From IMG/VR virus record IMGVR_UViG_3300037242_000101, positions 1 to 39,163 of that record: a DNA stretch of 39,163 nucleotides, one strand, 5' to 3'. Both the position numbers and the translations under genes were made by a program. Within the stretch, counting starts at the first letter, position 1. Each line of letters begins with the position of its first letter. The notes under the pieces are model-generated. The model searched no databases, had not been told where the DNA came from, and was given only the letters and a program-made list of their open reading frames with translations. The stretch comes from a virus. This document shows, in pieces, positions 11,273 to 31,851 of the stretch.

Positions 11273-12973
11273 CTAGAAAGGCAACCAGGTTGTCGCCGGA
11301 GCATTAGTAGGAGTACCACTCACGGAGTTATAGACCATCGCAAAACAGGGTCCTCCAGCTGAGGAGGGACCCATGGTTGTCGGGAATCCCGAAGTCGCGG
11401 TCGCGGGCGCCGTCACCGTCCATGTGATCGTGCCAGTAAGGTTCTTGAAGCAAATGCGGCGCCATTCACCATCGGCATTGGGAGCGGCAAGCGTGACTGT
11501 AAATGCTCCAGATGCGGTATTGGCTGACTCGTAAGTTGTCTGAATTTGTGCAGCGAGAGTATCTGAGGTAGTCCCGGTATTTACCGCTCTAGCAGTGCTC
11601 AAGGTATGCACAGAACTGCCGAGCGTAATGGTATTGGAGCCGCCACCGATATTAACTTGGCTGTTGGAACTGCCAGTCGCGAGACTAATGGAGGAGCCGT
11701 TATTACTGACATTCAGATTCACGGTGCCATCGTTAGTCAATGCCGTGAAGGTCCCAGGCTCTGGCGTCGTAGCCCCGATCGTCACGCCATTCATCGTGCC
11801 CGATGAGTCAGAGTTGATGACAACGGCGTTTGAACCACCTCCAATAGTCACTTGACCCGTGGTAGTGCCAATCCCAATAGTTGCCGAGTTGCCAGCGGCA
11901 TTAGCGGTTAGCTGGACACCGCCGTCCACGGTAAGCGAATTATCCAAGGTGACAACGCCAGTGGCAGTCAATGCAGCAACCGTGGCTGCCGCGGGTGTCG
12001 TCCCACCAATTACCGTGCCATTAAGGCCGGTAGAGGTGAACTCCCCAACACTCGCCCCGTTGATTGATATGTTTACCTGATTGCCCGAAACCCCATTGTA
12101 GAAGCCATTGCCAATTGCACTCTGCGAAGCATTCAACTGGACATTGTTGAAAGTGCTGGAACTGGCGAACAAGCTTGCAAGAGCAGTCCCCGTAACACTC
12201 TCTGTCTGACTCGCAGCCTGCGAATAGATCAAAAAGAGATCTGTCGAAGCCGGGGTACTGTCGGCTGTTAAATTGTTGAGCGTGATACCGGATTGCCACG
12301 AGGCGGGTGTGCCCGTGCCATTGGAGGTGTAAATCTGATTCGAGATCCCGCTTGGGGTGACACAACCCGCGCCAGCACAAGTTAAGCCGATGGCTGGGAT
12401 ATCGGCCGATACCAAAGCCCGAAAGGCAGGGGATGCCCCACCACCACTGACAGGACCTGAGAGCATGGTGTTGGCGTTCTGGATATTCGCCGTAATGGCT
12501 AGCGTGCCATTAGTCGTGATGGGGGAACCTGAGACCGTAAACCACGAAGGAGCAGTGAGTGCGATGCTCGTGACAGAACCGCCCCCACCCCCTCCACTAC
12601 CGCAACTCGTGGTCAGAGTTGGGGCCGCAGACAGACTCGACCAATTGATACAGTAGATGCCCGTCGAGCCGGGTAGTATTCCCCCGAAGAGCGCGCCATT
12701 GTTATATTGGAGTCCATAGAGACTCCCTCCAGGACTCGCCCCACCACCACCTCCGCTGCCAATGGGCACCCATCCTGAACCATTGTTTACCATTAATCCC
12801 TGATCGGTCGTGAAGGCATAGGTGTTGGCGGGGACCAAGTCGTAAGGCGGCAGTGAGGCTGAAGGAATTGGGCCACCGAATATTCCGTAGGGGCCGTTGG
12901 CACCGGCCTGCGCGAGAGCCAACCCAGGCAGGAGGAGGAAAAGCAGGATGAGTCTGCGCATGGAAGTTCTCAC
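11273..12973 (-). CDS. Fibre-like protein with Sec signal peptide, 566 aa
   Basis: GTG 12973 overlaps the previous stop (GTGA); ATG 12961 is an equal alternative four codons in. Either start gives a signal peptide, MRRLILLFLLLPGLALAQ. Next comes GPYGIFGGPIPSASLPP, then TYAFTTDQGLMVNNGSGW, a module shared with the genes starting at 26378 and 30209. The body has tail-fibre repeats of the IGGTTPAAATVAAL / IGATTPEPGTFTAL type and beta-helix-like GSSNSQVNIGGGSNTITLG runs. The C-terminus has paired Cys. Its position beside the spike gene supports a fibre; the export signal is unusual for one. Confidence 0.75.
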   Translation of the reverse strand: MRTSMRRLILLFLLLPGLALAQAGANGPYGIFGGPIPSASLPPYDLVPANTYAFTTDQGLMVNNGSGWVPIGSGGGGGASPGGSLYGLQYNNGALFGGILPGSTGIYCINWSSLSAAPTLTTSCGSGGGGGGSVTSIALTAPSWFTVSGSPITTNGTLAITANIQNANTMLSGPVSGGGASPAFRALVSADIPAIGLTCAGAGCVTPSGISNQIYTSNGTGTPASWQSGITLNNLTADSTPASTDLFLIYSQAASQTESVTGTALASLFASSSTFNNVQLNASQSAIGNGFYNGVSGNQVNISINGASVGEFTSTGLNGTVIGGTTPAAATVAALTATGVVTLDNSLTVDGGVQLTANAAGNSATIGIGTTTGQVTIGGGSNAVVINSDSSGTMNGVTIGATTPEPGTFTALTNDGTVNLNVSNNGSSISLATGSSNSQVNIGGGSNTITLGSSVHTLSTARAVNTGTTSDTLAAQIQTTYESANTASGAFTVTLAAPNADGEWRRICFKNLTGTITWTVTAPATATSGFPTTMGPSSAGGPCFAMVYNSVSGTPTNAPATTWLPF

Positions 12974-13458
12974 TGAGCGAGCGAAAAGGTGACTTGGTCC
13001 AGCGACACAAAGCCGCTCGAGGTAAAGCCGCTGGCGTCTGAGATTTCAAGATTCCCAGCCGGCGTCACATCGAGCCTCACCGGGGAATAAGCACTACCGC
13101 TGTAGGCTTGAGCGATAATCAGAAGCTCATAGGATGGTCCGACCGGCAGGCTGAGAAGCGCAGTACCGCTTGTGACTATCCCTGGCTTGATGAGGCCACG
13201 AAGAGATACGCGCCCGTTCAGATCTACCTGATACTGAGGTGGGGCAAAAAAGTCCCCATAGGGCGCCCAGCCGTTCTGCAGCGTGAGGTTTTGCCAAGCC
13301 GGAGGTTGAGGACGCCACGTCGAGAGCGCATTGAGAAACGTCTGCCATTCGGCCTGCGTCTTGGGCAGCTGCTGAGGCAGCTGGGCCGGTTGTGGGACCC
13401 CGGGCTGAGATTGTGAGACGAGCGATGCCACGGGAACCGAATATCGGTCGGCTGGCAA
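12970..13458 (-). CDS. Virion fibre/receptor-binding-type protein, 162 aa
   Basis: NGWAPYGDFFAPPQYQVDLN followed by GRVSLRGLIKPG and TALLSLPVG matches a common phage fibre-tip pattern (a beta domain with GRVxLRGLIKxG). The N-terminus is Pro/Gln-rich and linker-like. No ATG is available: the longest frame begins TTG 13458, with GTG 13431 as an alternative and no clear ribosome site for either. It is coupled by GTGA to the exported fibre gene, so the two are probably co-made. Confidence 0.65.
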   Translation of the reverse strand: MPADRYSVPVASLVSQSQPGVPQPAQLPQQLPKTQAEWQTFLNALSTWRPQPPAWQNLTLQNGWAPYGDFFAPPQYQVDLNGRVSLRGLIKPGIVTSGTALLSLPVGPSYELLIIAQAYSGSAYSPVRLDVTPAGNLEISDASGFTSSGFVSLDQVTFSLAQ

Positions 13459-13487
13459 GAAGCAGTGATGCGTTCGCGGTTAGAGCC

Positions 13488-13493
13488 TATAAT
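13488..13493 (+). promoter_or_regulatory. -10 box of a plus-strand promoter
   Basis: A perfect TATAAT lies in the only sizeable gap between minus-strand genes in this part of the late operon. Its last base is 7 bases before the ATG at 13500, so transcription would begin at or next to the start codon. No good -35 hexamer is seen 16-18 bases upstream, so an activator or extended contacts may be needed. Confidence 0.45.
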
Positions 13494-13499
13494 CCCCTC

Positions 13500-13643
13500 A
13501 TGCGAATCGCTCAGTTCCTCGGCATCTTCATCGCGATGTCCGTTCCTGCTATCTGGAATCAGGCGTGGTTCGAGCGGTACTACGAGCGCAAAGAGAAACT
13601 CAAAAAGGACAAGATCCTCGCGCGCTTACTGCGAAGTCAGTAG
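13500..13643 (+). CDS. Opposite-strand membrane mini-protein (moron-like), 47 aa
   Basis: This is the only well-supported plus-strand gene within the minus-strand late block. It fills the gap between two late genes and overlaps the end of the ejection-protein gene by 18 bases, tail to tail. The product starts MRIAQFLGIFIAMSVPAIW (one membrane segment) and continues with a charged helix, FERYYERKEKLKKDKILARLL. TATAAT 7 bases upstream and the lack of a ribosome site predict a leaderless mRNA. An independently transcribed opposite-strand gene is the usual form of a moron, which in prophages often alters the host surface or blocks other phages. Confidence 0.5.
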   Translation: MRIAQFLGIFIAMSVPAIWNQAWFERYYERKEKLKKDKILARLLRSQ

Positions 13644-15197
13644 CCCACCATATAGCGCAGGCTTTGCCAAAGGCTTCATGAGGCCCGGGGCGGCAGTAGC
13701 CGCGCGATAAGCCGGAGCTGCACCGCGCAGATATGCCCGACTCGCCATATTCATGAGCGCAGGGGCTGCGAGCATACCAGCACCACCACCCTCGAGCGCT
13801 CCATGACCTGTCAGATGTCCCGTCAGCCCACCCAATGCGCTTCCCAGAAGCGGCAAGATTCCAGATCCTAAACGTGTTGCGGTGCCCGAGTCCCCGACTA
13901 CCGGCTTGAACGCCTGGGAGAATCGCGCCGCGTTGTACAGGTCCGACTGATTACCCCCGAATGTATAACCGCCGCGATCTGTGCGCTGCAGGACATTCGC
14001 TAATACTTTACCGTTCACATCTCCAGTCGAGGGATTCACAACTCCGGGCTTCACCAGCGTCATGAGGCTGCGATACTGACCGCGTGCTGCTGCGTACGTC
14101 GCGGCATCCTCTGGTGACAACGAGGATTGCAGCAAGTCATCCGTGTGATCCTTGATCTGATAGAGCGCTTGACCTAAGTCCCGATCCCCTCCTTGGCTCG
14201 ACATCTGCTTATAGGCGGCTTTACCGAGTTTGCTCGAGAGCTGACCTACCTGCTGCCCGTTGATAGCGCCTGAATCGGTAAGGGACTGAAGCTGGGCTAC
14301 AAGCGGATGGTCCCGGATGCTCATATTTCCAGGCAGGAGTCCGCTGGAATCCGTATCGATGCCATCGATCACTGCGCGAGTCGTGGCTGGATCTGCCTGG
14401 ATGATGCGATTGGCGCTGCGGGCATTCTGAAACACATCCCCCAGCCGCTCGTTCGCACGTCCCAAGACAGAAGCATCTAATGATGTGCCGCTCTCACCGA
14501 TTGCGCGAGCGGCTTGCTGATTAAGGACCTTGGTATTGCCGGATGAGATCGCGCTGAAGGGCCCAGAAGTCCACGGCTGGGATTGCAACTTGGCCTCAAA
14601 CTGCTGCATGGGAACTGAGCCGACCGCCTGGCCGGGTGTGGCACGCATACCGATCGCTTGCCCACCAGCTAAAGCCTGTTGCTGTGCTCCCGTGAGATTG
14701 CTAGCGGCCTTTGCGGCAGCTGGCGCGAAATTGGCGGGCACATTGCCCATCGTCGGAACTGGCTGCGGCAGCTTGCCTCCTATCACGCCCGAGGTCAGAT
14801 TCTCGGCCAGATTGTTCAATCCGCCAGTCGGCGCAGGTACAGCGGCATCCAGGTTCTGATTGAACATGGATGACGGCAACTGATAGTCAGCCGTCGGCTT
14901 CTGGCCGGTCGCCTTGTAGTAAGCGTCTCCCAGAATGTTGCGCGTGCCCACACCCAGATCCATCGCCGCAAGAGGAAGGGCAGCGACCGCTTTGGCAGGG
15001 ATGCGCACCGCTTCGCGGCCTATGAAGCGACCAATACTCGCCGCAGAATTATCAGGCTGTGATGTCGTATTCTGCTGCGAAGTCCCGCTCAAAAGCGCGC
15101 CAAACTCATCGGGAGCTGCAGAAGGAGCTGCAGACGCAGCGGAAACTGGCTGAGTCGTCTGCGTCAATAGCGAATCAAATTCGTCAGGGGGTGGCAT
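13626..15197 (-). CDS. Putative DNA-ejection (internal virion) protein, 523 aa
   Basis: The N-terminus has two copies of a short motif, PDEFDSLLTQ and PDEFGALLSG, in an Ala/Ser/Gln-rich disordered region. The middle is helical and charged (DHPLVAQLQSLTDSGAINGQ, ALYQIKDHTDDLLQSSLSPEDAA). The C-terminus is Gly/Ala-rich and amphipathic (LLGSALGGLTGHLTGHGAL). This composition, and its place after head genes and before fibre genes, fits podovirus ejection proteins that leave the capsid with the DNA and line the channel. There is no lytic transglycosylase motif. Confidence 0.6.
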   Translation of the reverse strand: MPPPDEFDSLLTQTTQPVSAASAAPSAAPDEFGALLSGTSQQNTTSQPDNSAASIGRFIGREAVRIPAKAVAALPLAAMDLGVGTRNILGDAYYKATGQKPTADYQLPSSMFNQNLDAAVPAPTGGLNNLAENLTSGVIGGKLPQPVPTMGNVPANFAPAAAKAASNLTGAQQQALAGGQAIGMRATPGQAVGSVPMQQFEAKLQSQPWTSGPFSAISSGNTKVLNQQAARAIGESGTSLDASVLGRANERLGDVFQNARSANRIIQADPATTRAVIDGIDTDSSGLLPGNMSIRDHPLVAQLQSLTDSGAINGQQVGQLSSKLGKAAYKQMSSQGGDRDLGQALYQIKDHTDDLLQSSLSPEDAATYAAARGQYRSLMTLVKPGVVNPSTGDVNGKVLANVLQRTDRGGYTFGGNQSDLYNAARFSQAFKPVVGDSGTATRLGSGILPLLGSALGGLTGHLTGHGALEGGGAGMLAAPALMNMASRAYLRGAAPAYRAATAAPGLMKPLAKPALYGGLLTSQ

Positions 15198-16902
15198 TTG
15201 CGCCCCAGTACTGGCTCGGCTTTGGCGCCCAGCCGCTTCCCGCAGCCTTACGCCAGGAGTTCACGAAGGACTGCCCCTGCTGGCCCATGGATTGCACGAT
15301 CTCTTTCTGGATGGCCGGAGGCGAGCTTGCAACCACGAAGTAAAGCGGGTTCGAGTTCTGGATAAAGTCGTTGCGCACATTGTTGACGCCGTTCACATCC
15401 AAGGAAGATCCGCGCTGTTGTGCGACCTGTGCCCGAGCCATGTTGTAGCGAGCAATGCCGTCCATGTAGCCGGATACCTTGTCGAGCCCGTTCTGTGAGA
15501 GCGTGAGATTAGGCAAGCTCTTGCCCATGTACTGGAAGATCTGCGCAGCCTCTCGGCTACCGAGCTGCTTGGTCGCCGCGGCCTGCAACTGAATGGCGAT
15601 CTTCTGACCTTCCTGAGCGGAACCGAGGGACTTCATCTGATCGGGCGTGATGAGCCCGGCAGAATTAAGGTACTGCAGCGTCTTCATCCGAGTTTCAGCG
15701 AACTGGCCCGGGGAGAAATCATTCGCAGCCTGGCGCAGCTCCTGAGTCTGCGCGAGCATCTGCTGACCACCTTCAGCTTGGGTCTGATATTCCTTGTTCG
15801 CTTCGATGGCGCTCTCAGCGTTGCCGTGGAGCATCGTGGTGGTGCCCGGACCGAGCTTCGCTACACCACCGGGAACTGTAGCTGCCGGCGCTGTACCGGG
15901 TTGCGCGAAGGGACCGAGAGCCGTGGATGCCGCAGCGGGTGGCGTGGTGGGCCTAGATCCACCGGGTTTGGCCTGACCACCCAAGAGCGCGGCTTTGTTG
16001 ATGAAGTGCGTATTGCCTTGGCTGTCGGTGACTTCCTCAACCTGACCGGTAGCCTCACCCTGAGCTTCAGCCGCGGCTTTCTGCTGCAATGCCACTGACA
16101 TCCCAGGCATGAGACTTGCCTGGTTCCCTGTGCTTTCGATGCCGGAACTCGGATTCAGGGTCGAAATCACCCCACTCCCGGGATTGATACGCGTCTGGAT
16201 ACCGCCCATCGAGGAGATATGCAGAAGCCCCAAATCCTGTTGGAGCTTGCCGTTGTAGATGGCCTGAGCGAGCGCGTGGTTGCCTTGGGCTTGTGCCTGC
16301 TGGATCTGCTGCTGATCCACCGCGACAGCACTCTTGGCACTCTCCATCCGCGTCGCCATCCCGGGGTCGTATTGGAGCTGCGCCTTGCCGAGCTCGGTCA
16401 GCCCTTGGCCTCCAATGCCGCCCATATCCATGAGCGCACCCATACCCATGGTCGAAAGTCCGTTACCACCCCCCATGAGGCCTTGCTGTGGAGGCGCTGC
16501 AGAGGCCTGTGGGGGCATAGACTGGGCAGGCGCTCCCTGTGGGGCGGGTACGCCTTGGGCGCCCTGTGGGGCTCCCTGCGCTAGCGGTGGCTGTCCCTGC
16601 GCATAGCGCGAGGCAGCCTGAATGATCGGTAGCTGGGCCTGCATGCGCTGCATCTGCAGCTGCTGCATGCTGCGCTGCTGCTGGGCGGCTCGGTTCTGCT
16701 GATAGCCCTGAATGCCTTGCATGAGGCCATCACCGAGATTGCCGCCATATTTGGCCCCGGACATGAGCCCCATGCCGAGGAACTGAAGAAGCTGCGGGTC
16801 AGCAACCTTCGAGATATTCCCGAGAGCGGCCATGAGACCGCCAGAGGCGGGTGCAGGCGCCGCATTCGGCGTCGGAGGGGTATCTGCGTCAGGGTCGGCC
16901 AT
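15184..16902 (-). CDS. Large low-complexity virion protein, probably ejection type, 572 aa
   Basis: I start at ATG 16902, one base after the previous stop; nine further codons upstream would overlap that gene. The sequence has a Met/Gln-rich segment near residues 60-95 (RSMQQLQMQRMQAQLPIIQ) and Pro/Gly/Ala repeats. A helical C-terminal domain follows (LGSREAAQIFQYMGKSLPNL, RYNMARAQVAQQRGSSLD). Its stop overlaps the next ejection gene by 14 bases. Composition and neighbours suggest an internal virion protein; no enzyme motif is visible. Confidence 0.55.
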   Translation of the reverse strand: MADPDADTPPTPNAAPAPASGGLMAALGNISKVADPQLLQFLGMGLMSGAKYGGNLGDGLMQGIQGYQQNRAAQQQRSMQQLQMQRMQAQLPIIQAASRYAQGQPPLAQGAPQGAQGVPAPQGAPAQSMPPQASAAPPQQGLMGGGNGLSTMGMGALMDMGGIGGQGLTELGKAQLQYDPGMATRMESAKSAVAVDQQQIQQAQAQGNHALAQAIYNGKLQQDLGLLHISSMGGIQTRINPGSGVISTLNPSSGIESTGNQASLMPGMSVALQQKAAAEAQGEATGQVEEVTDSQGNTHFINKAALLGGQAKPGGSRPTTPPAAASTALGPFAQPGTAPAATVPGGVAKLGPGTTTMLHGNAESAIEANKEYQTQAEGGQQMLAQTQELRQAANDFSPGQFAETRMKTLQYLNSAGLITPDQMKSLGSAQEGQKIAIQLQAAATKQLGSREAAQIFQYMGKSLPNLTLSQNGLDKVSGYMDGIARYNMARAQVAQQRGSSLDVNGVNNVRNDFIQNSNPLYFVVASSPPAIQKEIVQSMGQQGQSFVNSWRKAAGSGWAPKPSQYWGANATP

Positions 16903-16903
16903 G

Positions 16904-17341
16904 CTACTGGCCGCCACCCAGGAGGCCACGCAGCATGAGCTGCTGCATCATCTGTGGGTTTACGCCCTGCCCTCCTTGCATTTGTCCTCCCATCATCCCA
17001 GCACCGGAGCCGGGAGCAACGGGGGGGCCCCCTTGCACTACAGGGGTCTGGCGTGGCAGTTGGGCCTGCGGCATGGGCTGCTGGCCGGCGCGTGCCAGTC
17101 CCATCCCTTGATTCATGAGGCCCATGGCGGGACTTTGGCCCATCTGACCACCGCCTTGTCCCATCGCAGCAAGTCTCGCGAGCATGGAGTTTTGCGGTTG
17201 CGCCGCTTGAGGATTGGGAGCACCAGCGGCTGTAGCCGCATTTGGCCCAGCAGCAGCCGAGGGGAAGTTCTGCAACCATGTTTGCAGCTGTTGGCTGTTT
17301 GCCTGACCGCCGCCTCCGCCACCTCCGCCGCCGCCTGCCAT
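16904..17341 (-). CDS. Gly/Met/Gln-rich virion-associated protein, 145 aa
   Basis: GGAGATAGGT precedes ATG 17341. The protein opens with MAG followed by a run of glycines (about ten) encoded by mixed GGC/GGA/GGT codons, so it is not a simple homopolymer. The rest is Met-, Gln- and Pro-rich (GQMGQSPAMGLMNQGMGLAR), largely disordered. It is the first of two adjacent disordered genes, probably co-packaged with the DNA. Function is inferred from position only. Confidence 0.55.
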   Translation of the reverse strand: MAGGGGGGGGGGQANSQQLQTWLQNFPSAAAGPNAATAAGAPNPQAAQPQNSMLARLAAMGQGGGQMGQSPAMGLMNQGMGLARAGQQPMPQAQLPRQTPVVQGGPPVAPGSGAGMMGGQMQGGQGVNPQMMQQLMLRGLLGGGQ

Positions 17342-17350
17342 ACCTATCTC

Positions 17351-18064
17351 CTATGCCGCGAATAGCGCGGCGAGTTCTGCCGCAGTGCCGACCCCAGCAA
17401 TACCAAGTCCAGCATCCTGCATGGCCGAATTACTGTTCTGCTGTGCCGAAGTACCGCCCATGGATGAGCCGTTGAGCCCGAGAAGCCCCGAATACCATGA
17501 GAGCGCATTATAGGGCGCGTTGATAAGGTTCTGCTGTTCGGTTTGCTCAGTGCCACCGGCCTGCATCTGAGCCTGTGCCGGAGCATATGCGCCCTGTACT
17601 ACCCCGGGAGACAGCGCCTGAGCCTGCGTCATGGCGTTAAGGCCCGACTGGTATTGCCCGCCGTAGAGCTGGGAGGCGAGATTGTTCAAGCTGCTTTCTT
17701 GCACCGGGGTTGAGTTTATGACGTTGGAACCTGCAGCTCCGAACTGCGAATCCATGGTGTTCTGGACCTGATTGGCACCCGTTTGAAACTCCCCAGCCAA
17801 ATAGGGGTTTGACGAGGCATTCATCAAAGCACCGGAAGTCTCCAGCTGATTCGCCCCAAGAGCTGAATTCGCTGCGCTCTGCGCGTAGGGACTCTCGGCA
17901 CCCGTCGCGGCGATGCCGCTTTGCTGCATGCCAGACAATGGCGCGACAAGAGAGCTTGCAGGCTGAGTAGACATGGGCGTCGCGGTTCCCAACTCCTGAG
18001 AGAGGTACGGCTGCACCCATGCCGGGAGGGTGCTCTGCGTCGTTGAGGTGCCACCGCTACTCAT
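17351..18064 (-). CDS. Disordered virion protein, 237 aa, possible ejection protein
   Basis: ATG 18064 overlaps the previous stop (ATGA), so I reject the longer frame that would add 59 residues over the preceding gene. The product is Ser/Gln/Ala-rich with regularly spaced small residues (SGALMNASSNPYLAGEFQTG, NNLASQLYGGQYQSGLNAM). It ends in an Ala-rich helix (GIAGVGTAAELAALFAA) that could enter a membrane. This fits a small ejection protein of the T7 gp14 kind by character, not by homology. Confidence 0.6.
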   Translation of the reverse strand: MSSGGTSTTQSTLPAWVQPYLSQELGTATPMSTQPASSLVAPLSGMQQSGIAATGAESPYAQSAANSALGANQLETSGALMNASSNPYLAGEFQTGANQVQNTMDSQFGAAGSNVINSTPVQESSLNNLASQLYGGQYQSGLNAMTQAQALSPGVVQGAYAPAQAQMQAGGTEQTEQQNLINAPYNALSWYSGLLGLNGSSMGGTSAQQNSNSAMQDAGLGIAGVGTAAELAALFAA

Positions 18065-18522
18065 TGCATGGTCCTCAGTTCCTGCGGCTGGCCGAGGGAC
18101 TGGGTTTGAGGAGGTTGCACTCGTGCCTGCAAAATGATCCCAACGCGCTTGGCTCCAAGGATCTTTTCCCATCCAGGTCGGCCCCACATCCTCAACATTT
18201 GAATCCCCCGACGCACGCATTCTTCTTGGGCGTAATCCCACGCACGAACGATCGCGGCGAGATCATCCCCGCCCGCATATACGATTGTGCCTACGCGCTG
18301 GCGAGGATAATTCCAAATCTGGAATACGAGCGCGAATTCCCCTTCGCTGTACCAAAGCCCGTAGTACCCACGCGCGATGCCGAGGAACACATCCGAAAGC
18401 TGCTCGTCCCCGGTCCCGTATTCGAGCGCGCGCTCGATCCAATGGCGCACCTTGGGCCAGATGTCCTGCAATTGCTCCGGCGTGACCTCGTAGTTCACCG
18501 AGGCTACTGTGGTGACTTTCAA
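18061..18522 (-). CDS. GNAT-fold-like virion-morphogenesis protein, 153 aa
   Basis: No ATG is present; TTG 18522 is the longest start and GTG 18498 an alternative. The pattern resembles the acetyltransferase-like fold found in podovirus internal-virion genes (T7 gp13 region). It has a DVFLGIARGYYGLW strand, the ALVFQIWNYPRQRVGTIVY hairpin, a long helix (LAAIVRAWDYAQEECVRRG), then LRMWGRPGWEKILGAKRVG. The acetyl-CoA-binding loop is not convincing, so it is probably not an active enzyme. It is coupled to the next late gene by ATGA. Confidence 0.5.
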   Translation of the reverse strand: MKVTTVASVNYEVTPEQLQDIWPKVRHWIERALEYGTGDEQLSDVFLGIARGYYGLWYSEGEFALVFQIWNYPRQRVGTIVYAGGDDLAAIVRAWDYAQEECVRRGIQMLRMWGRPGWEKILGAKRVGIILQARVQPPQTQSLGQPQELRTMQ

Positions 18523-18545
18523 GCCCCCAAGTTAAGCATTCTCGG

Positions 18546-22231: not shown

Positions 22232-22234
22232 GAT

Positions 22235-22588: not shown

Positions 22589-22589
22589 T

Positions 22590-22916: not shown

Positions 22917-22919
22917 GGG

Positions 22920-23906
22920 CTAACCGTTCGTATCGGTCAGGAACCCATGAGCATGCTCGTTGCCAACTTCGTTGCTGTACTCGACGATCAGCATCTTCTG
23001 ATCCGAGTCACCGGTCTTGGCGAGCGGGACCGTCTGGAACGGCCGCAGATACGCCACCCGGGCATAGTTCGGATTGACGAAGATCATGTACGAGCTTGAA
23101 GCAAGGAAGATGTCCGGCACCATTTTCACTTGCCCGAAGTCGCTCTCGTACACATCGACCTTCGTCAAGAGCGTCGCATCTTCGACATCTATGAAACGAG
23201 TGCCTGGACCGGTGAAGGTCGAGACTTGCTGCTTGTTCTTGGGCGACAGCAAGCAGTACTCAGGAGACTCACCAGAGTTCTTGTACACTGACTGCAGGAC
23301 AGTCTTGACATTCGCTTCAGTGGGGGCATTTAAAGTCGTGCCGACCGTATAGGCAGCGGTGCCATTGCCGAAGGTCTCGGAACCTGCCGTGACAGTTCCA
23401 GTACTCGCGGTGCCGGGAGTCGAGGCAACGGAGAGGAAGTTCGTCACGAGAAAACAGGGTAAACCCGCAGTATTGCGCGCGGTGCTGGACGAACCGGCAG
23501 AGCGGGCGTTGTTGTAGGTGAGAATGCCTTCGATGTCGCGCTTGAGTTCTTTGCTTTTCTTGAACAGCTGGTAGCCCATCTTATTGGTGCCACCAGCTGC
23601 GATCACGCTCTGAGACGTGCCAGAAATCGCGATCGTCTTGTTGCTGATCTGAGTATAGTTGCCCATGCGCCCCGTCGCCGTGAGTGCGATGTTCGTTGGG
23701 TTGTCGCCTTCGACTGCGGCATTTAAGAGGTTCTGCGCGGCGAGCGCGTCCACATCCCACTCGTGGTAGGTCTGTTTGGCTTCCGCCTTCTTCGCCATAT
23801 TGAAATACGGCGTCTTGAAGGGGTCCACGTTGTAGACGGCGTCAATCAGATCCTCGCGGATATTGGTCTGCGTATAGACCTGGAGCGTATTGGTAGGAAC
23901 TGTCAC
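22920..23906 (-). CDS. Major capsid protein, DUF5309/SU10-type HK97 fold, 328 aa
   Basis: The start is GTG 23906 with AGGAG six bases upstream. Family features appear in order: NIREDLIDAVYNVDPFKTPY near residue 15, TYHEWDVDALAAQNLLNAAV, GRMGNYTQISNKTIAISGT, then the E-loop-like helix FKKSKELKRDIEGILTYN, AGLPCFLVTN and a C-terminal VEYSNEVGNEHAHG. It would build the procapsid on the scaffold encoded just upstream. No protease or prohead cleavage signal is apparent. Confidence 0.88.
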   Translation of the reverse strand: MTVPTNTLQVYTQTNIREDLIDAVYNVDPFKTPYFNMAKKAEAKQTYHEWDVDALAAQNLLNAAVEGDNPTNIALTATGRMGNYTQISNKTIAISGTSQSVIAAGGTNKMGYQLFKKSKELKRDIEGILTYNNARSAGSSSTARNTAGLPCFLVTNFLSVASTPGTASTGTVTAGSETFGNGTAAYTVGTTLNAPTEANVKTVLQSVYKNSGESPEYCLLSPKNKQQVSTFTGPGTRFIDVEDATLLTKVDVYESDFGQVKMVPDIFLASSSYMIFVNPNYARVAYLRPFQTVPLAKTGDSDQKMLIVEYSNEVGNEHAHGFLTDTNG

Positions 23907-23915
23907 AGAAAACTC

Positions 23916-25049
23916 CTAGACGAGCGTCTCGAAATAGGCCGCACCTGCGTTTTGATCGCGGTACTTGGAGCCTTTCCAGCGCTCTTTGGCTTGTGAAGCT
24001 GCAACCCTTTGCGGGTCGCGGACCGTGCGTGTCCCGGGGCTTGAAACCTGCGGGGCTGCTCGCACGCGTTTGACTGCCTCAGCTTTGCCTGCCTGGAGTT
24101 TCAGAAATTGACTCGCGTAATGCAGTACCTGCATGTAGCGGTGGTCAAAGACCTGATTTAACTCTGCTTCGGTAAATCCGAGCTGCCGACCGAATGTTTG
24201 CATGTCGGCAGTGTCTGCTTTGAATCGGTTCGGATCGCGCCACGCGGGCACGATATCGAGCATGCGCTCGCGCTCCTGCACAAGGGTGCGCGCTTGCTCC
24301 TGCTGGCGTTGTGCTTCCTGCTGCTGGCGCAGTTGACCCAGCTGTGCCAAATGGCCCTGCACCTGGGCCAGACGCTGCTGGAATTCCTGAGAGCGCACGG
24401 CCCAATCCAGGGGACTCGTAGCTTTCAACTGCTCCAGCCCCTGGAAGTCAGCGAAGAGTTGCTGCTGGGCGAGCTGGAACAAGCCCTGCGCCGCGGTGAG
24501 ATTCTGATTCCAGACCGTCTGCGCCTGAGTGGCCTGAGCTTCCCAGTCACGCTGCTTGTTGGCGAGCTCCTGGGAGCGACGGGTGTAGTTGCCCTCGCGC
24601 GAATACCCCTCCATCAGTTCCTTGAGCGCGATAGTCTCGCTCTTTCCATCGACCTTTACGGTGACGGGAAGGGTGAGGAAGGATTCGCGCTCGATCTTTG
24701 ACTGCGTGAGGTAGTCGTCAAGGCTTTGGTACTCAGGGCCATCGGCAATCCCCTCCGCATCAGCCTGCTCGACATCATTTGCCTGCTGCTGAGCATTGGG
24801 ATCAGCCTCTGAAGACCCTTCCGCGACCTTTGGATCAGGAACCGCCTTTAGGGCTGGTGCCTCCCCGCGAAGCGCTGCCTGGTTCGCGGTGTCCCGTGCG
24901 CGCCCCTCTTGGAGTTGCTGCGCTTCCTTTGGCTCTTGGGAATCAAATGCGCCAGCCTGCCACAGCCCCTCGAAGACTGCGGCGCCCTTGGCGTCATCCG
25001 AGCGGCCGGTGAAGTTAGAGACGCCTGTGGGGTTCGGTACGGCTGCCAT
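23916..25049 (-). CDS. Scaffolding protein, 377 aa
   Basis: The gene sits directly before the capsid gene, as scaffolds do. The N-terminal 110 residues are acidic and disordered (EADPNAQQQANDVEQADAEG). A conserved-looking block follows (LPVTVKVDGKSETIALKELM), then a long Gln/Glu-rich coiled coil (about residues 160-265). The end is basic and probably binds capsid subunits (AVKRVRAAPQVSSPG, RWKGSKYRDQNAG). This is the standard scaffold layout. Its start is preceded by a hairpin that may bring the ribosome site closer. Confidence 0.8.
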   Translation of the reverse strand: MAAVPNPTGVSNFTGRSDDAKGAAVFEGLWQAGAFDSQEPKEAQQLQEGRARDTANQAALRGEAPALKAVPDPKVAEGSSEADPNAQQQANDVEQADAEGIADGPEYQSLDDYLTQSKIERESFLTLPVTVKVDGKSETIALKELMEGYSREGNYTRRSQELANKQRDWEAQATQAQTVWNQNLTAAQGLFQLAQQQLFADFQGLEQLKATSPLDWAVRSQEFQQRLAQVQGHLAQLGQLRQQQEAQRQQEQARTLVQERERMLDIVPAWRDPNRFKADTADMQTFGRQLGFTEAELNQVFDHRYMQVLHYASQFLKLQAGKAEAVKRVRAAPQVSSPGTRTVRDPQRVAASQAKERWKGSKYRDQNAGAAYFETLV

Positions 25050-25052
25050 ATC

Positions 25053-25069
25053 GTTGCAGAATTTGCAAC
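25053..25069 (-). promoter_or_regulatory. Hairpin between ribosome site and scaffold start
   Basis: A perfect inverted repeat, GTTGCA and TGCAAC around a 5-base loop, lies 3 bases before the scaffold ATG (25049). The only Shine-Dalgarno-like GAGG is on the far side of this stem, too far away in linear sequence. Folding the hairpin would bring it near the start, as known for T4 gene 38. The stem is only 6 bp, so this is a possibility, not a certainty. Confidence 0.4.
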
Positions 25070-25103
25070 CTCATGACCCCAGCAGTGATGCATTTACGGC
25101 GTT

Positions 25104-25424
25104 TCATATCCTCTCGCGCCCAAAGAGGGAGAAAAGCCGAAGGCCCGAGGCACGCTTAGCCTCTGCTGCATCCTCTTCGGCCAGACGCTGTGCTCCAAGG
25201 CGTCCGGTGAGGAGGATCTGCTCGAAGTACTCAAAGAACATATCCGCGACTTGCTCAAGCCGCACGAGATCCATTGAGGCTTGAGGATCGGTGGAAGTCT
25301 TCAGCTTCTGCCGCGCAGCCCGAAGGTTTGAGTAAATCTCCTCCTTGGCCTTCACGAACAGAGGCTGATCCAAAATGTGACGCGCATCGCCTGCAAATCG
25401 GACTTCCTCTTGCGGTGTAGGCAT
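25104..25424 (-). CDS. Conserved small head-region protein, 106 aa
   Basis: ATG 25424 is chosen over the TTG two codons upstream because AGGAG sits 9 bases before it. The protein is helical and charged (FVKAKEEIYSNLRAARQKLKTS, RLEQVADMFFEYFEQILLTG). It lies between an exported fibre-like gene and the scaffold. It may be an assembly helper; I recognise no domain. Confidence 0.65.
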   Translation of the reverse strand: MPTPQEEVRFAGDARHILDQPLFVKAKEEIYSNLRAARQKLKTSTDPQASMDLVRLEQVADMFFEYFEQILLTGRLGAQRLAEEDAAEAKRASGLRLFSLFGRERI

Positions 25425-25445
25425 GCTCAAGTACTCCTGCGCTGA

Positions 25446-26378
25446 TTAGTTCGCAAAGCAACCTAGCTGGATGATCTCGCTCGCGGTCCAAGCAAGAGGG
25501 GTGCCAGCGGTGCGGCTGTAGTTCGTCACCGTGATCGTGGTGGTTGAGCCTGCCGTCACTTCAGTCTGCCCGGTGGGCGTCGTGCCGGTGTCAGAAGCAA
25601 AGCAGGACCATGCATCTACAGCGGCAGGAAGCCCAACCACCCCGCTCGAAGCAGTACCGCCCGTGCCGACGTTGATTGAAAACGACGCGGTGCTTGCGCC
25701 GTGCGAGATGCTCGGGCTCGTCCCGAAGCCGCTTGAAACCGTTGGAGCGGTGGTCGAGATTGTAAGATTGGCACCGCCGAGGTCGATATTTCCGGACAAA
25801 AGCTGCGTGGTGTCAGCAGTCCCGCCAAGAGTAATTAAGCCGTTAGCGGTGCCGGTATTGATGCTGACTGTCGCGCCGTTGTTGCTCGCGTTTATATTCA
25901 CCGAACCGTTAACGGTGACGAGTCCCGTAGTGATTAGCGTCGTGAACTTGCCGCTGGCAGGAGTCGTGGCCCCGATCGCTGGCGGCGTCGCATAGTTCTG
26001 AGTGGCAAAGGTGCCAAAGGCGCTGCCATTGGTGTCGTTGCAAGTTACAGCCAGCGTGCCACTGGTAGTGCAATCGCCGCTTAAATTACCGCCGGTAATT
26101 GATAAAGCGCCCGAAAAAGTTGCCAAGTTTCCGCTAGCCGGTGACCCGGTGGTAGTAACCGTCCCTGACCCTCCACTAGAAACCGCCACCCATGCACTCC
26201 CATTGTCGTAAAGCAGTCCCATGTTTGTGGTGAAGGCATAGGTATTATTGGGCACCGATGTTGCGAGTGGCAGCGAGGCCGATGGAATCGGGCCGCCAAA
26301 TACCCCATACGGGCCCATCGCTGTGGCAGCGAATGCCAATGAGGGGAGAAGCAACAACAACCATAGATAGCGTTTCAT
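25446..26378 (-). CDS. Exported fibre-like protein, paralogue 2, 310 aa
   Basis: ATG 26378 is coupled to the portal stop (ATGA). The signal peptide is MKRYLWLLLLLPSLAFAATA. Then come GPYGVFGGPIPSASLP and NTYAFTTNMGLLYDNGSAW, which align closely with the gene starting at 12973. Fibre-type repeats follow (IGATTPASGKFTTLITTG, SINTGTANGLITLGG). It has four mature Cys as two close pairs (GDCTTSGTLAVTC and SCFAS with LGCFA), suitable for disulfides after export. It is sandwiched between portal and scaffold genes, an odd place for a fibre. Confidence 0.75.
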   Translation of the reverse strand: MKRYLWLLLLLPSLAFAATAMGPYGVFGGPIPSASLPLATSVPNNTYAFTTNMGLLYDNGSAWVAVSSGGSGTVTTTGSPASGNLATFSGALSITGGNLSGDCTTSGTLAVTCNDTNGSAFGTFATQNYATPPAIGATTPASGKFTTLITTGLVTVNGSVNINASNNGATVSINTGTANGLITLGGTADTTQLLSGNIDLGGANLTISTTAPTVSSGFGTSPSISHGASTASFSINVGTGGTASSGVVGLPAAVDAWSCFASDTGTTPTGQTEVTAGSTTTITVTNYSRTAGTPLAWTASEIIQLGCFAN

Positions 26379-28600
26379 TGGATCTGTCCTGCTGCGTTGG
26401 TCACGTCGGGTCCAAGTTCCTGTGCCTGTGCTTTCTCGGCCGCCAGCACTGAGGCGATGGCCGGAATGAGTTTCAAGAGAATCTGCAGATGATTCGTATC
26501 GAGGTTAACTTCCCGCTCCTTGTGCTGCTGAAATGCCTCGTGAGTGATGTTCTGTTCCTGATTCCTGTTGTCGGCAGCGATCTGAGTCTTCTGCTGCAGA
26601 ATCTTGCCCATGAGTTCCATGGTGCGGCGCTGATCCTCGCTTTGCTCATGCGACTGCTGGGCCTTGGCGCGAATCTGCGCGGCCTGCACCTGCGGGGCCG
26701 GCGGATGGGGCTGGTTCTGCATCTGCTGCATGTGCTGAGCATATTCAGCAGATGCCGGGTCCATCGCATAACGTTCAGGGTTGGGAAAGCCCAACGCCTC
26801 GCACATCGCCTTGAAGGTCTCGTAAGCCTGTTTCGGGCCTACGAGTCCCAACTGCCCGACCGTGGCCTGAGCCTGCCCCAGCTGCATGATATTGGCGCGT
26901 AGCTGTTCCTGATTCCCGCTGCCAAGACCCACATTCGGGGTTACCTTGGTACGTCTGCGCCATTGGGTGGGATCAACCTTCATCCATTTGCCGGCGATCT
27001 CAAACTCAAGTTCCCCCTCCTCGCGACGCATGAGCTCAGAGTGGATCTTGAGGAAGATCCCCTTCACCCCTTCTGCGAGGAGTCTGGCGATCAGGTCCAG
27101 AATGAGGGATGCCGCCGACATGGCAGCCAATTGCCCGCCTTTGGTGACGTTCTGCAGCTCGTCCGCATCCAGTCCCATCGTGCCCTTGCCGATACCCGTT
27201 CTCTGGGTGCGCAGAGACTCCATGTACTGAAGGGCTGGGAGTACCTGTTCTGTGAGATTCGAGGGATGGACAATGGCCGAGATCCAGTTCGCCGGTGGTC
27301 CGTTGCCGCGCACCACTCCGCCCGGGCGCGAAGACAGAAGATCATCGAAATTGCAGTTGCGCCAATCGACAGCAACCCGCTGGTTGTTCGATATTTTGAG
27401 ATTATCGAGCCCTGATCGCAGCAAATCCGTCTCGATAATCTGCAGGTCCATCACGAGATCGTAGATGGAGATACCCGTGTGCCGATGCGGCATGCGCATG
27501 GCTTCGGATGAGACAAAGGGCGTCTCCTCAATCACCTCGTTTTCCGCAATCTTGTTACCGAGCACGATGACGCGACGAAGCTCGGCTATATCATCCCCAT
27601 CGAAATCCACCTTGATGATGACCTTGAGCTTCTCGATCTCTTGCATCGAGAAATCTGACGGATTCTCTATCGAGAGCTGATCCACCACCGCCATACGCGC
27701 CAGTGCATCGATCTCAAGCCAGTTAGGCCGTCCCGCAGGGGCTTCCAAAACGATGTCTTTGTCATAACCGGCGGTAATGAGGTCTGAGCGAGCCTCTGCG
27801 CACTCGTGCGCTGCAAAGACAACTCCCTCCAGTCCCTGACGGGCTCGTGGGGAAATCCGCATTTCCTCGGGGGGTAAGGGTTCCACACAGACATTCTCCT
27901 CAGTCCCGGTGCGACGGATCTTGATATCCCATACAGGAACTTGGGTGACTCCCATGCTGCCGTCAGGCATCTGCATCGGCATATCTTGGGTGTGCTCGTC
28001 GCGCTCGAGCACATCGACCTTGACGCCGCCCTTCTCCTCGAGGATGGGAGCGAGTTCGAGCTCCTGAAGACCGGTATAGCGCTCTTCGCGCACGAAGTGC
28101 TCTTCCTTGGTGTAAACCTCGGCGTACCCGTTTCGAAGCAATAACGCATCCCAGAAGAAGTCGTGCAGGATCAAAAGTCCATTGTTCTGCTGCATGAAGA
28201 TGTGGTTAACCACCATGGTTTCCACTTCCGCCTGCTCGGTGTCGTTCGCGTTCTCCGCGTCGAATTTGCAGACCGATTTGGCAGCAGAGAACATTCTCAT
28301 CAGCTGCGGCATGATCCAGGACATGGTGTCGCGCACGATGGGGAGTACCACCTGAGCGCGGTTCTCGATCTCATTCCCTAATGGACGGGCGAAAAAGGCA
28401 TTCAGGGCGTTGTAGCGGTCTACCTCAAGGGTCGTGAGGACATCCTTGGACGGGTAGATGGTAGTGGAGATCGTCGCGCCTGCGGCCACCTGGGAGCCCA
28501 GAGAGGCCTTCATGTACATGCTGATGAGCGACAGGAGATCCCCATCAGACATCTTCTGCCCGCGGTTGCGCTGGATGGAGTCTCCCGGGCCGCTATCCAT
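26375..28600 (-). CDS. Portal protein, P22-like, 741 aa
   Basis: I start at ATG 28600, just after the stop of the small gene before it; a frame extension by 12 codons would overlap that gene. Portal-type features include WIMPQLMRMFSAAKSVCKF, NNGLLILHDFFWDALLLRNG, YAEVYTKEEHFV, MDLQIIETDLLRSGLDNL and RTGIGKGTMGLDADELQ. The C-terminal 130 residues are a Gln/His-rich coiled coil (IRAKAQQSHEQSEDQRRTME), like the barrel of P22-family portals. The dodecamer forms the packaging and ejection channel. Confidence 0.85.
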   Translation of the reverse strand: MDSGPGDSIQRNRGQKMSDGDLLSLISMYMKASLGSQVAAGATISTTIYPSKDVLTTLEVDRYNALNAFFARPLGNEIENRAQVVLPIVRDTMSWIMPQLMRMFSAAKSVCKFDAENANDTEQAEVETMVVNHIFMQQNNGLLILHDFFWDALLLRNGYAEVYTKEEHFVREERYTGLQELELAPILEEKGGVKVDVLERDEHTQDMPMQMPDGSMGVTQVPVWDIKIRRTGTEENVCVEPLPPEEMRISPRARQGLEGVVFAAHECAEARSDLITAGYDKDIVLEAPAGRPNWLEIDALARMAVVDQLSIENPSDFSMQEIEKLKVIIKVDFDGDDIAELRRVIVLGNKIAENEVIEETPFVSSEAMRMPHRHTGISIYDLVMDLQIIETDLLRSGLDNLKISNNQRVAVDWRNCNFDDLLSSRPGGVVRGNGPPANWISAIVHPSNLTEQVLPALQYMESLRTQRTGIGKGTMGLDADELQNVTKGGQLAAMSAASLILDLIARLLAEGVKGIFLKIHSELMRREEGELEFEIAGKWMKVDPTQWRRRTKVTPNVGLGSGNQEQLRANIMQLGQAQATVGQLGLVGPKQAYETFKAMCEALGFPNPERYAMDPASAEYAQHMQQMQNQPHPPAPQVQAAQIRAKAQQSHEQSEDQRRTMELMGKILQQKTQIAADNRNQEQNITHEAFQQHKEREVNLDTNHLQILLKLIPAIASVLAAEKAQAQELGPDVTNAAGQIQ

Positions 28601-28607
28601 GGACTCG

Positions 28608-28790
28608 TTAGCCAAAGAGCTTCTCCGCGAGCGCAATCAGCTCATTCCATTCCCCATCAAGCTGAATACGGCAGTCATCGCGCAGCCCGAAGCGCTGCTC
28701 ACGATGTAGGAGCTTGATCAGTGCCGTACGGAAGGCGAGCCGCTCAGCCTGGCGCGCGGCGCCCTTCTGGGGCTTTGCTGGCTGGGGCAT
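28608..28790 (-). CDS. Small basic protein before the portal gene, 60 aa
   Basis: ATG 28790 to TAA 28608, eight bases before the portal start. It overlaps the coiled-coil gene upstream by 47 bases in another frame. The product has a basic N-terminus (QPAKPQKGAARQAERLAF) and a helical acidic end (GEWNELIALAEKLFG). The ribosome site is weak, so translation is probably by coupling. Function unknown. Confidence 0.5.
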   Translation of the reverse strand: MPQPAKPQKGAARQAERLAFRTALIKLLHREQRFGLRDDCRIQLDGEWNELIALAEKLFG

Positions 28791-28914
28791 TGAGACTCAG
28801 TGTCCTGCGTTCTTCAAGGATTTTCAGGCGCTCAAGAAGCTGATCGAGTTTCAGCTCAAGATTGGCGACGCGCACGTTGAGCGTCTTTATCTGTTGATCA
28901 GACCAGATGCTCAC
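28744..28914 (-). CDS. Coiled-coil mini-protein, 56 aa
   Basis: GTG 28914 has AGGAG eight bases upstream, a better start signal than many neighbours. The product is one clean heptad coil: IKTLNVRVANLELKLDQL, then LERLKILEERRTL, and a disordered Ala/Pro/Arg tail. It overlaps the start of the following small gene by 47 bases. A trimer-forming or adaptor role is possible. Confidence 0.6.
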   Translation of the reverse strand: MSIWSDQQIKTLNVRVANLELKLDQLLERLKILEERRTLSLNAPASKAPEGRRAPG

Positions 28915-28925
28915 GTGCAGGGCTC

Positions 28926-29207
28926 CTACTTGGCTTGGGGAACTGTTCCACGTGGAACAATTGGTGCCACTGGCACTGACTTGTCCGATTCATCCGTGGC
29001 CGAGCGCAATACGCTCTTCGCGTCAGGCGTGCGCTGCATCATCGTCCCATCAGGAGGTTGTGGGACCTGTACCCAGCCATTGCGAAGGGCAAGGGCTACA
29101 TCAGCAGGCTCTACGTCCACACACCCCGGTCCGATGACGTAAGAGATGCCTTCATACCCCGTGAAATTCGTGCCACTTTGGGTAGGGAACATCAGCATCA
29201 TGCTCAT
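28926..29207 (-). CDS. Late accessory protein, duplicate copy B, 93 aa
   Basis: ATG 29207 overlaps the stop of its neighbour (ATGA). It shares VIGPGxVDV and ALRNGWVQVPQPPDG with the next gene upstream, so the two arose by duplication. It has a Met-rich start (MSMMLMFPT) and a Pro/Val-rich end (VPVAPIVPRGTVPQAK). It lacks the coiled-coil C-terminus of copy A. Function unknown. Confidence 0.65.
   Translation of the reverse strand: MSMMLMFPTQSGTNFTGYEGISYVIGPGCVDVEPADVALALRNGWVQVPQPPDGTMMQRTPDAKSVLRSATDESDKSVPVAPIVPRGTVPQAK
29056..29084. repeat. 29-bp direct repeat, copy 1
   Basis: This stretch, containing gggacctgtacccagccatt, is identical to 29376-29404 at 320-bp spacing and in the same orientation. 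It encodes the conserved RNGWVQVPQPP core of the duplicated gene pair, so it marks a gene duplication. The coding constraint explains the protein match; identity at every base suggests a fairly recent duplication or gene conversion. Confidence 0.85.
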
Positions 29208-29518
29208 TGGGTCTTTGCCTCGACATCAGCTTGAAGAAGGTGGGCAAGTTCATCCTGAGCGGCCTTCATTTGCACTTCCAGGGCTTCGATCTGGGTCGTC
29301 AGTTCACCTTCGCGCCAGGCCCTCTTGAGCGCTTCCTGAACCGCGTTTCGTCTGACTGGAATCCTGCCATCCGGGGGTTGTGGGACCTGTACCCAGCCAT
29401 TGCGTAAGGCCAGCTGCACATCGAACCCTATGACATCCACCGCCCCCGGTCCAATGAGGTAATTGTCCCGGTTCTTGCCGAGAAAGTTACTTGCAGCCGG
29501 TCCACAATGCATCAGCAT
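29204..29518 (-). CDS. Late accessory protein, duplicate copy A, 104 aa
   Basis: I start at ATG 29518, right after the stop of the exported gene at 29523; an open frame running further upstream lies over that gene and is rejected. The N-terminal half (NYLIGPGAVDVIGFDVQLAL, RNGWVQVPQPPDG) pairs with copy B. The C-terminal half is a coiled coil (GELTTQIEALEVQMKAAQDE). Copies A and B share a 29-base identical stretch. The conserved core probably binds a common partner. Confidence 0.65.
   Translation of the reverse strand: MLMHCGPAASNFLGKNRDNYLIGPGAVDVIGFDVQLALRNGWVQVPQPPDGRIPVRRNAVQEALKRAWREGELTTQIEALEVQMKAAQDELAHLLQADVEAKTQ
29376..29404. repeat. 29-bp direct repeat, copy 2
   Basis: Second copy of the repeat at 29056-29084, inside the upstream member of the duplicated gene pair (ending at 29204). 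Identity ends abruptly on both sides, where the two genes have diverged. Confidence 0.85.
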
Positions 29519-29522
29519 GGGC

Positions 29523-30209
29523 TCAGTAAGGGGTAGCCATGAACTGGATGATATCCCCTGAAGTCGTGGTCGCCGATACCGTGCAGCTATAAGTCGTCTG
29601 AGCGGTTTCCGTGAATACCACAGGATGCGTGACATCCTCTGCCACACACATCCAGCCATTCGCCGCCGGGGGTAGCTGAATGACCGGAACACAGCTCGTG
29701 GCAGTCGTTGCGAACTGCCCTCCCAAGGCAGAGCCTTTCGTGGCACTCACCGTGGTACAGCCGGATGAAATGTTGAGCGCGGCCCCGGTGGATTGCTGAG
29801 TAGCCGTCCAAATCGTGCCGTTCGACCACACTTCACCCAGATCGGACGTATATCCGTAGGTCGGAGCCCCGGGAGGCGCGGTATACCCGTCAATGGTCGC
29901 CGTAACAGTGGGACTGCCAACGAGGCTTCCAGTCCATGTTGCCGTGGTGGCATTGTTCGTCAGGGTGACGGTGCGGCTCTCCCAGTCGCTGAAAACCACC
30001 AGATAGGACCCGGTAGTACCGGTCCAATTGCTCGCGATCGCCGTGGATGCACCGCTAGGTGCCACATTGAAGGTGAGCGGGATGTTCCCCGGAAGTTGCG
30101 CGAAGGTCCCAGCCCCTCCGAAGATGCCGTAAGGCGCCTGGCCGGCTGCATACGCGAGTACCGGGAGTGCGATCGCAACGAGTGCGATCAGTTTACGAGT
30201 TATGCCCAT
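29523..30209 (-). CDS. Exported fibre-like protein, paralogue 3, 228 aa
   Basis: Signal peptide [21 protein letters not shown], then [18 protein letters not shown], matching the PYGxFGG module of the genes starting at 12973 and 26378. A second shared piece occurs later and out of the usual place: [18 protein letters not shown]. Between them is an Ig-like stretch ([19 protein letters not shown]). Four mature Cys sit in the C-terminal domain (SGCTT, TSCVP, WMCVA, YSCTV). It lacks the long fibre repeats, so it is a short version. The start overlaps the previous gene by 10 bases. Confidence 0.7.
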
Positions 30210-31835: not shown

Positions 31836-31851
31836 GGTGAAAGCTCTCCTG

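What the first reader, a model, noticed from the sequence alone, without database searches (positions are those of the whole stretch)
11273..30209. Three paralogous fibre-like genes carry Sec signal peptides and a shared PYGxFGG module
Genes starting at 12973, 26378 and 30209 each have a signal peptide, then PYGxFGG, and a TYxxTxDxGxxxNGxxW piece. Fibre-type repeats follow in two of them. Mature Cys numbers are even (6, 4 and 4 by my count). Fibres normally fold in the cytoplasm before joining the virion, so three Sec-targeted copies in one phage, scattered among portal, scaffold and spike genes, suggest periplasmic assembly, release of soluble receptor decoys, or surface display. I know of no described phage system like this.
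Basis: partly seen in the sequence, partly recalled or inferred. Interest (0 to 1): 0.85.

Follow-up and report, generated by a model that had tools for sequence, protein, structure and literature searches.

The report
Phage fibres carrying secretion signals
This soil-type virus of bacteria makes at least five fibre- or spike-like proteins with the address label that sends proteins out of the cell interior, and unrelated phages and about a tenth of sampled Burkholderia-family genomes have similar ones, so some phage 'fibres' probably act outside the virus particle rather than as parts of it.

Summary
Genes A (12961/12973→11273), B (26378→25446) and C (30209→29523) start with Sec signal peptides (SPs), followed by PYGxFGG; mature Cys counts are 6, 4 and 4. 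Two more genes are also SP-bearing: the 1,373-aa spike next to A and a 139-aa Fn3-like protein. The SPs look functional. In four gene C orthologues the SP is only about 20% identical and the mature part 67-77%, with all four Cys kept. Mature Cys numbers are even in 33 of 39 SP-fibres against 18 of 38 unexported fibres.

The idea is not wholly new. GenBank already notes a 'possible signal peptide domain' on the tail fibres of Burkholderia phages Bcep1, Bcep43 and Bcep781. BcepC6B gp19 and PBR31 orf035 have unremarked SPs. About 10% of sampled Burkholderiaceae genomes carry gp19 homologues, mostly exported and mostly beside an ordinary fibre or spike, often near lysis genes. The window's A–spike–TM cassette recurs in a myovirus that shares nothing else detectable with it.

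Best reading: late-made, Sec-exported, disulfide-bonded accessory fibres and spikes that act outside the virion on surface polysaccharide. Export is well supported by computation. Non-virion function is inferred (about 50%). Virion proteomics would decide.

The parts
11273..12961 (-). Gene A: 562-aa SP-bearing fibre protein (GTG 12973 is an alternative start); SP about residues 1-17/19, PYGIFGG module, TTPxPGTFTALT repeats, C-terminal cap; 6 mature Cys
   Evidence: C-terminal 144 aa 72% identical to an SP-fibre in myovirus contig G309
12905..12961 (-). Signal peptide of A (MRRLILLFLLLPGLALA|QA)
25446..26378 (-). Gene B: 310-aa SP-bearing fibre protein between portal and scaffold genes; 4 mature Cys
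26319..26378 (-). Signal peptide of B (MKRYLWLLLLLPSLAFA|ATA)
25449..25745 (-). C-terminal cap domain of B: all-beta, fibre-cap-like; its two Cys lie in strands 46-52 and 91-98 and shift together in relatives
29523..30209 (-). Gene C: 228-aa SP-bearing protein between terminase and portal genes; 4 mature Cys invariant in 4 phages
30147..30209 (-). Signal peptide of C ([24 protein letters not shown])
7141..11262 (-). 1,373-aa SP-bearing spike-like protein (MNKITRLLGIAFLAFAPAFVSA|QSC), directly downstream of A; 13 mature Cys
4689..5108 (-). 139-aa SP-bearing Fn3-like protein (MRTFIRLLALLAFAGSVHA|G), 2 mature Cys
6785..7141 (-). 118-aa coiled-coil protein with C-terminal membrane segment; third gene of the mobile A-spike cassette (75% identical in G309)
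6375..6788 (-). Phage lysozyme (PF00959) directly downstream of the cassette
12970..13458 (-). 162-aa unexported minor-tail/virion protein just upstream of A; the only obvious ordinary tail-tip candidate
   Evidence: counterpart in G002 (L106 5844-6281)
26375..28636 (-). Portal protein (phrog_1216), context
22920..23906 (-). Major head protein (phrog_1328), context
23916..25049 (-). Scaffolding protein (phrog_3927), context
33274..34551 (-). Terminase large subunit, 48% to Hollowayvirus H66, context

Best explanation
A, B, C, the spike and the Fn3-like protein are made late and exported by Sec. Their signal peptides are removed and they fold in the oxidising periplasm, where their paired cysteines form disulfides. 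They are not virion parts but an accessory 'secreted fibre' set. They act outside the virion on cell-surface or matrix polysaccharide, by binding and in some relatives by hydrolysis. They are freed at lysis, or earlier if the host's type II secretion takes them. Likely benefits are clearing matrix for progeny, or covering receptors so that progeny do not stick to debris and rivals cannot enter. Shown by computation: SPs, their conservation as SPs, Cys pattern, fibre-type domains, recurrence beside ordinary fibres and in unrelated virion types. Inferred: cleavage, disulfides, absence from virions, target and benefit.
For: SP evolution: gene C orthologues in 4 phages have SPs 4-7 of ~20 residues identical against 67-77% in the mature part, with 4 invariant Cys. 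Bcep1 and Bcep781 likewise have different SPs but a shared mature start QFAPGQxLTAAQLN.

Enrichment: SPs in 11/49 fibre-like ORFs against 9/658 other ORFs; 0/1,415 internal windows (loci partly chosen by homology to the SP genes, so the 22% is not a natural rate).

Cysteines: even in 33/39 exported against 18/38 unexported proteins (Fisher p=0.0006; 0.03 if proteins with one Cys are left out). Cys 1.43 against 0.58 per 100 aa. In the B cap the two Cys move together between homologues and lie in two strands.

Not tied to one virion: window podovirus and myovirus contig G309 share no detectable homologues except A, spike and the 118-aa protein (plus paralogue B); G309 also has an ordinary S74-type fibre.

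Accessory to ordinary RBPs: 13 of 20 Burkholderiaceae loci have an unexported fibre/spike nearby, some with lysis genes beside or between. In BcepC6B and PBR31 the SP-fibre sits between the ordinary fibre/spike and the holin.

Anchor swap: the C-terminal half of phrog_11393 sits behind an SP in BcepC6B gp19, PBR31 orf035 and a Paraburkholderia prophage, but on a T7-type virion N-terminus in Dickeya phage BF25/12.

Polysaccharide enzymes: SP proteins in G003 and G004 carry GH5 cellulase domains above Pfam's cut-off.
Against: A and the spike occupy the slot where relative G001 has an ordinary unexported tailspike, and the window has no other large RBP candidate, only a 162-aa protein. Spike proteins have odd Cys numbers (13, 11), as has the GH5 protein of G004 (11). 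No enzyme domain was found in the window's own five proteins. No proteomics or expression data exist. The SP call is my heuristic, not SignalP. Single contigs cannot show timing.
Confidence: 0.5

Rival explanations
1. They are true virion receptor-binding proteins that fold in the periplasm and join the tail only after lysis has mixed periplasm and cytoplasm.
For: A and spike sit in the tailspike slot (G001 has an ordinary tailspike there). Bcep781 gp49 lies among baseplate genes and looks like a full tailspike. Tips are swapped while SP and N-terminal module stay (Bcep1 vs Bcep781), as for host-range genes.
Against: The same cassette occurs in a podovirus and a myovirus that share no virion proteins. 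Many phages have an ordinary fibre/spike besides. The unexported virion N-terminus is missing in the exported versions.
Confidence: 0.2
2. They act on the infected cell or lysogen itself: exported fibre tips occupy receptors or surface polysaccharide from inside or on the surface, giving superinfection exclusion or lysogenic conversion.
For: In several Burkholderiaceae prophages the SP-fibre lies at or beyond the lysis genes, in some near an integrase, a usual place for lysogenic-conversion genes (L208, L211, L215). B and C are inserted among head genes like extra genes.
Against: No membrane anchor or lipobox on A, B or C. No similarity to the phage's own RBP tip. Late-operon position argues against expression in lysogens.
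Confidence: 0.2
3. The N-terminal segment is not a working signal peptide but an uncleaved hydrophobic anchor that fixes the fibre to the virion or membrane.
For: None direct; some long hydrophobic starts (G003 639-aa protein) are ambiguous.
Against: Classical n-h-c regions with AxA-type sites; SP sequence diverges freely while the site is kept; Cys pairing pattern.
Confidence: 0.07
4. Artefact: wrong start codons make ordinary cytoplasmic fibres look exported.
For: A has no strong Shine-Dalgarno site.
Against: Start sites with Shine-Dalgarno or stop-start overlaps for B, C, spike and Fn3; conservation of the SP in homologues; no internal start scored as SP.
Confidence: 0.03

Closest known systems
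Bcep781 gp49 / Bcep43 gp48 / Bcep1 gp51 (Naesvirus tail fibres annotated 'possible signal peptide domain')
   Same: SP, then a conserved mature N-terminal module and a swappable fibre/spike body; even Cys number in Bcep781 and Bcep1 (14 and 4)
   Different: No sequence similarity to A, B or C detected; lies in the baseplate region of a myovirus; one copy, not five
BcepC6B gp19 and Xanthomonas phage PBR31 orf035
   Same: SP-bearing fibre after an ordinary fibre/spike and next to the holin; podoviruses
   Different: Other N-terminal module (PIQLLNPAGSTSGQ) and other C-terminal tip (ARRVR type, phrog_11393)
Contig G309 (IMGVR_UViG_3300050116_000025) cassette
   Same: SP-fibre with the same C-terminal cap (72%), SP-spike (53% overall), same 118/120-aa membrane protein, same order
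   Different: Carried by a myovirus that has its own ordinary S74 fibre; SP-fibre N-terminal module differs (no PYGxFGG)
Ordinary phage tail fibres and tailspikes
   Same: Repeat types, caps and pectate-lyase-like bodies
   Different: Ordinary ones start with a virion-attachment domain and stay in the cytoplasm

Membership tests
Sec/SPase I exported protein | Positively charged n-region, hydrophobic h-region, AxA-type cleavage site | tested here: met
   (heuristic, not SignalP)
Sec/SPase I exported protein | SP diverges faster than mature part but keeps its pattern | tested here: met
   for gene C
Sec/SPase I exported protein | Cleavage and periplasmic location of the product | not testable with these tools
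   needs cell fractionation or N-terminal sequencing
Phage tail fibre/spike (virion receptor-binding protein) | Fibre-type repeats and C-terminal cap | tested here: met
   A and B repeats; B cap model most like an uncultured-phage protein, with weak matches to tail fibres
Phage tail fibre/spike (virion receptor-binding protein) | N-terminal virion-attachment domain | tested here: not met
   no PHROG/Pfam match in A, B, C or spike; SP at that end instead
Phage tail fibre/spike (virion receptor-binding protein) | Present in the virion | not testable with these tools
   no proteomics for this contig
Naesvirus SP-bearing tail fibre (Bcep781 gp49 type) | Sequence homology to gp49/gp51 | tested here: not met
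   no similarity to A, B or C detected; resemblance is of design only
Naesvirus SP-bearing tail fibre (Bcep781 gp49 type) | SP plus fibre body with even Cys number | tested here: met
   (not met by the spike, 13 Cys)
Soluble phage polysaccharide depolymerase | Recognisable catalytic domain | tested here: not met
   none in the window proteins; GH5 met only in SP proteins of G003 and G004

The most novel reading that the evidence does not exclude
Many tailed phages of Gram-negative soil bacteria carry a second, Sec-exported set of fibre/spike proteins that never enters the virion. It is passed as cassettes between unrelated phages and acts on surface or matrix polysaccharide around the lysing cell. 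This would be a general 'phage secretome' made of fibre parts.
Probability: 0.4. Interest if true: 0.8.

Novelty: new variant of a known kind. Interest (0 to 1): 0.62.

Why it matters
Fibre-like genes in phage genomes are routinely labelled tail fibres and used to predict host range. If a sizeable class is exported and not on the virion, those predictions and annotations are wrong for it. These proteins would instead be natural secreted polysaccharide binders or depolymerases. The question is testable in isolated phages (BcepC6B, PBR31, Bcep781).

Tried and rejected
AlphaFold of mature C with 4 sequences gave pLDDT 52 and was not used. The B cap model (pLDDT 71) gave no significant PDB match. 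The spike gave no Pfam, PHROG or PDB match. A degenerate DNA search for PYGxFGG gave 37 stretches; only the C orthologues in related phages were true hits, the rest were WhiB-like and other chance matches. Search of reference genomes with the B cap found nothing. The own-receptor decoy idea was tested by comparing SP-fibres with their neighbouring ordinary fibres: no homology. Literature searches for phage tail fibres with signal peptides found no functional account; the original Bcep781 genome paper is not in the library. The PBR31 paper mentions an SP on its esterase gp40 but gave no signal-peptide passage for orf035.
Full report
WHAT IS THERE. The window is a complete IMG/VR record of 39,163 bases. 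It is a podovirus-like phage: terminase 48% to Hollowayvirus H66, portal phrog_1216, head protein phrog_1328, scaffold phrog_3927. A and B share 58% of their first 91 residues (E 3e-23). C shares only the PYGxFGG string and, by profile comparison, the TYxxTxDxGxxxNGxxW stretch (hhalign 87%). The same test finds two more exported proteins: the 1,373-aa spike directly downstream of A, and a 139-aa Fn3-like protein.

ARE THE SIGNALS REAL? Four lines agree. (1) Gene C has orthologues between terminase and portal in three further phages (G001, G002, G003). The SP part is 4-7 of ~20 residues identical, yet each remains a clean SP; the mature part is 67-77% identical and keeps four Cys. (2) Across ~100 fetched loci, SP calls fall on 11/49 fibre-like and 9/658 other ORFs, and on none of 1,415 internal windows. 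Loci were partly chosen by homology to the SP genes, so the 22% is not a natural frequency. (3) Mature Cys numbers are even in 33/39 SP-fibres against 18/38 unexported fibres; Cys density is 1.43 against 0.58 per 100 aa. Some entries are homologues of each other, and the p-value weakens to 0.03 when one-Cys proteins are left out. (4) In the C-terminal cap of B and its homologues the two Cys shift together and lie in strands 46-52 and 91-98 of a moderate-confidence model.

RELATIVES. The same design recurs with unrelated sequences. G003 has three SP-bearing proteins in the tail slot, one with a GH5 cellulase match above Pfam's cut-off; G004 has an 819-aa SP protein with a strong GH5 match. Contig G309, a myovirus with its own ordinary S74-type fibre, carries SP-fibre, SP-spike and a 120-aa membrane protein homologous and syntenic to the window's A, spike and 118-aa protein. 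Apart from paralogue B, these are the only detectable homologues between the two phages. Among isolates, BcepC6B gp19 and PBR31 orf035 are unremarked SP-fibres placed between the ordinary fibre/spike and the holin. Bcep1 gp51, Bcep43 gp48 and Bcep781 gp49 are annotated 'possible tail fiber; possible signal peptide domain'; Bcep1 and Bcep781 share the mature N-terminal module behind different SPs. In 398 Burkholderiaceae genomes, 39 have a gp19 homologue. Of 34 distinct proteins examined, 22 score as SP-bearing, and a few more look so by eye. In 13 of 20 loci an ordinary unexported fibre or spike lies nearby, in some with lysis genes beside or between.

MODULAR LOGIC. The C-terminal half of phrog_11393 appears behind an SP in BcepC6B, PBR31 and a Paraburkholderia prophage, but on a T7-type virion N-terminus in Dickeya phage BF25/12. 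The virion anchor has been exchanged for an export signal. In gene A versus its G309 homologue the N-terminal module behind the SP is replaced while an SP is kept.

HOW IT MOST LIKELY WORKS. Best reading (0.5): a late-made, exported, disulfide-bonded accessory fibre/spike set that acts outside the virion on polysaccharide and is released at lysis. The strongest argument for 'outside the virion' is that one cassette serves a podovirus and a myovirus with no virion proteins in common, and that SP-fibres usually sit beside an ordinary fibre. The strongest argument against is that in the window itself A and the spike fill the slot of the ordinary tailspike of G001, leaving only a 162-aa unexported tail protein. 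Post-lysis attachment to virions (0.2) and action on the infected cell or lysogen (0.2) remain open. A simple decoy made from the phage's own tip is unlikely, as no homology was found between SP-fibres and neighbouring ordinary fibres.

NOVELTY. SP-bearing tail fibres are noted in GenBank annotation of one Burkholderia phage group; no functional account was found in the open-access library. New here: five such genes in one phage, the evidence that the signals are under selection, the Cys statistics, the mobile cassette, the anchor-for-signal exchange and the wide spread in Burkholderiaceae. I therefore rate it a new variant of a known kind. No prediction by SignalP and no experiment stands behind it yet.

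Noticed in passing
window 2815-3216 (+): 133-aa ORF on the opposite strand with a lipobox-like start (LLAVAAC), a possible phage lipoprotein.
   Followed up: no
L109 8312-10231 and L110 16365-18824: SP-bearing phage proteins with GH5 cellulase domains; the second keeps the NEP motif of the family and an ITEF motif that may hold the nucleophile.
   Followed up: partly
L107 3851-8125: 1,424-aa unexported protein right behind the gene C orthologue, with chitobiase C-terminal, Fn3-associated and legume-lectin domains.
   Followed up: partly
L014 5902-7740: Unexported 612-aa protein carrying the TYxxTxDxGxxxNGxxW piece in front of what looks like a polysaccharide deacetylase.
   Followed up: no
L123 (JAGWGN010000027.1): Contig labelled Micrarchaeota MAG carries a portal gene of this bacterial phage group, probably a binning error.
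   Followed up: no
L111 18473-18862 and L004 4518-6992: SP-bearing 129-aa ORF followed in the same frame, after one stop codon, by a spike-like ORF; may be a split gene.
   Followed up: no
window 31197-32027 (-): 276-aa protein with a C-terminal He_PIG (putative Ig) domain between terminase and gene C.
   Followed up: no
L185, L187, L188, L192: SP-fibres in Burkholderiaceae sharing the N-terminal module of gp19 but ending in another tip (IVxEYN/Q), suggesting tip swapping on exported fibres.
   Followed up: partly
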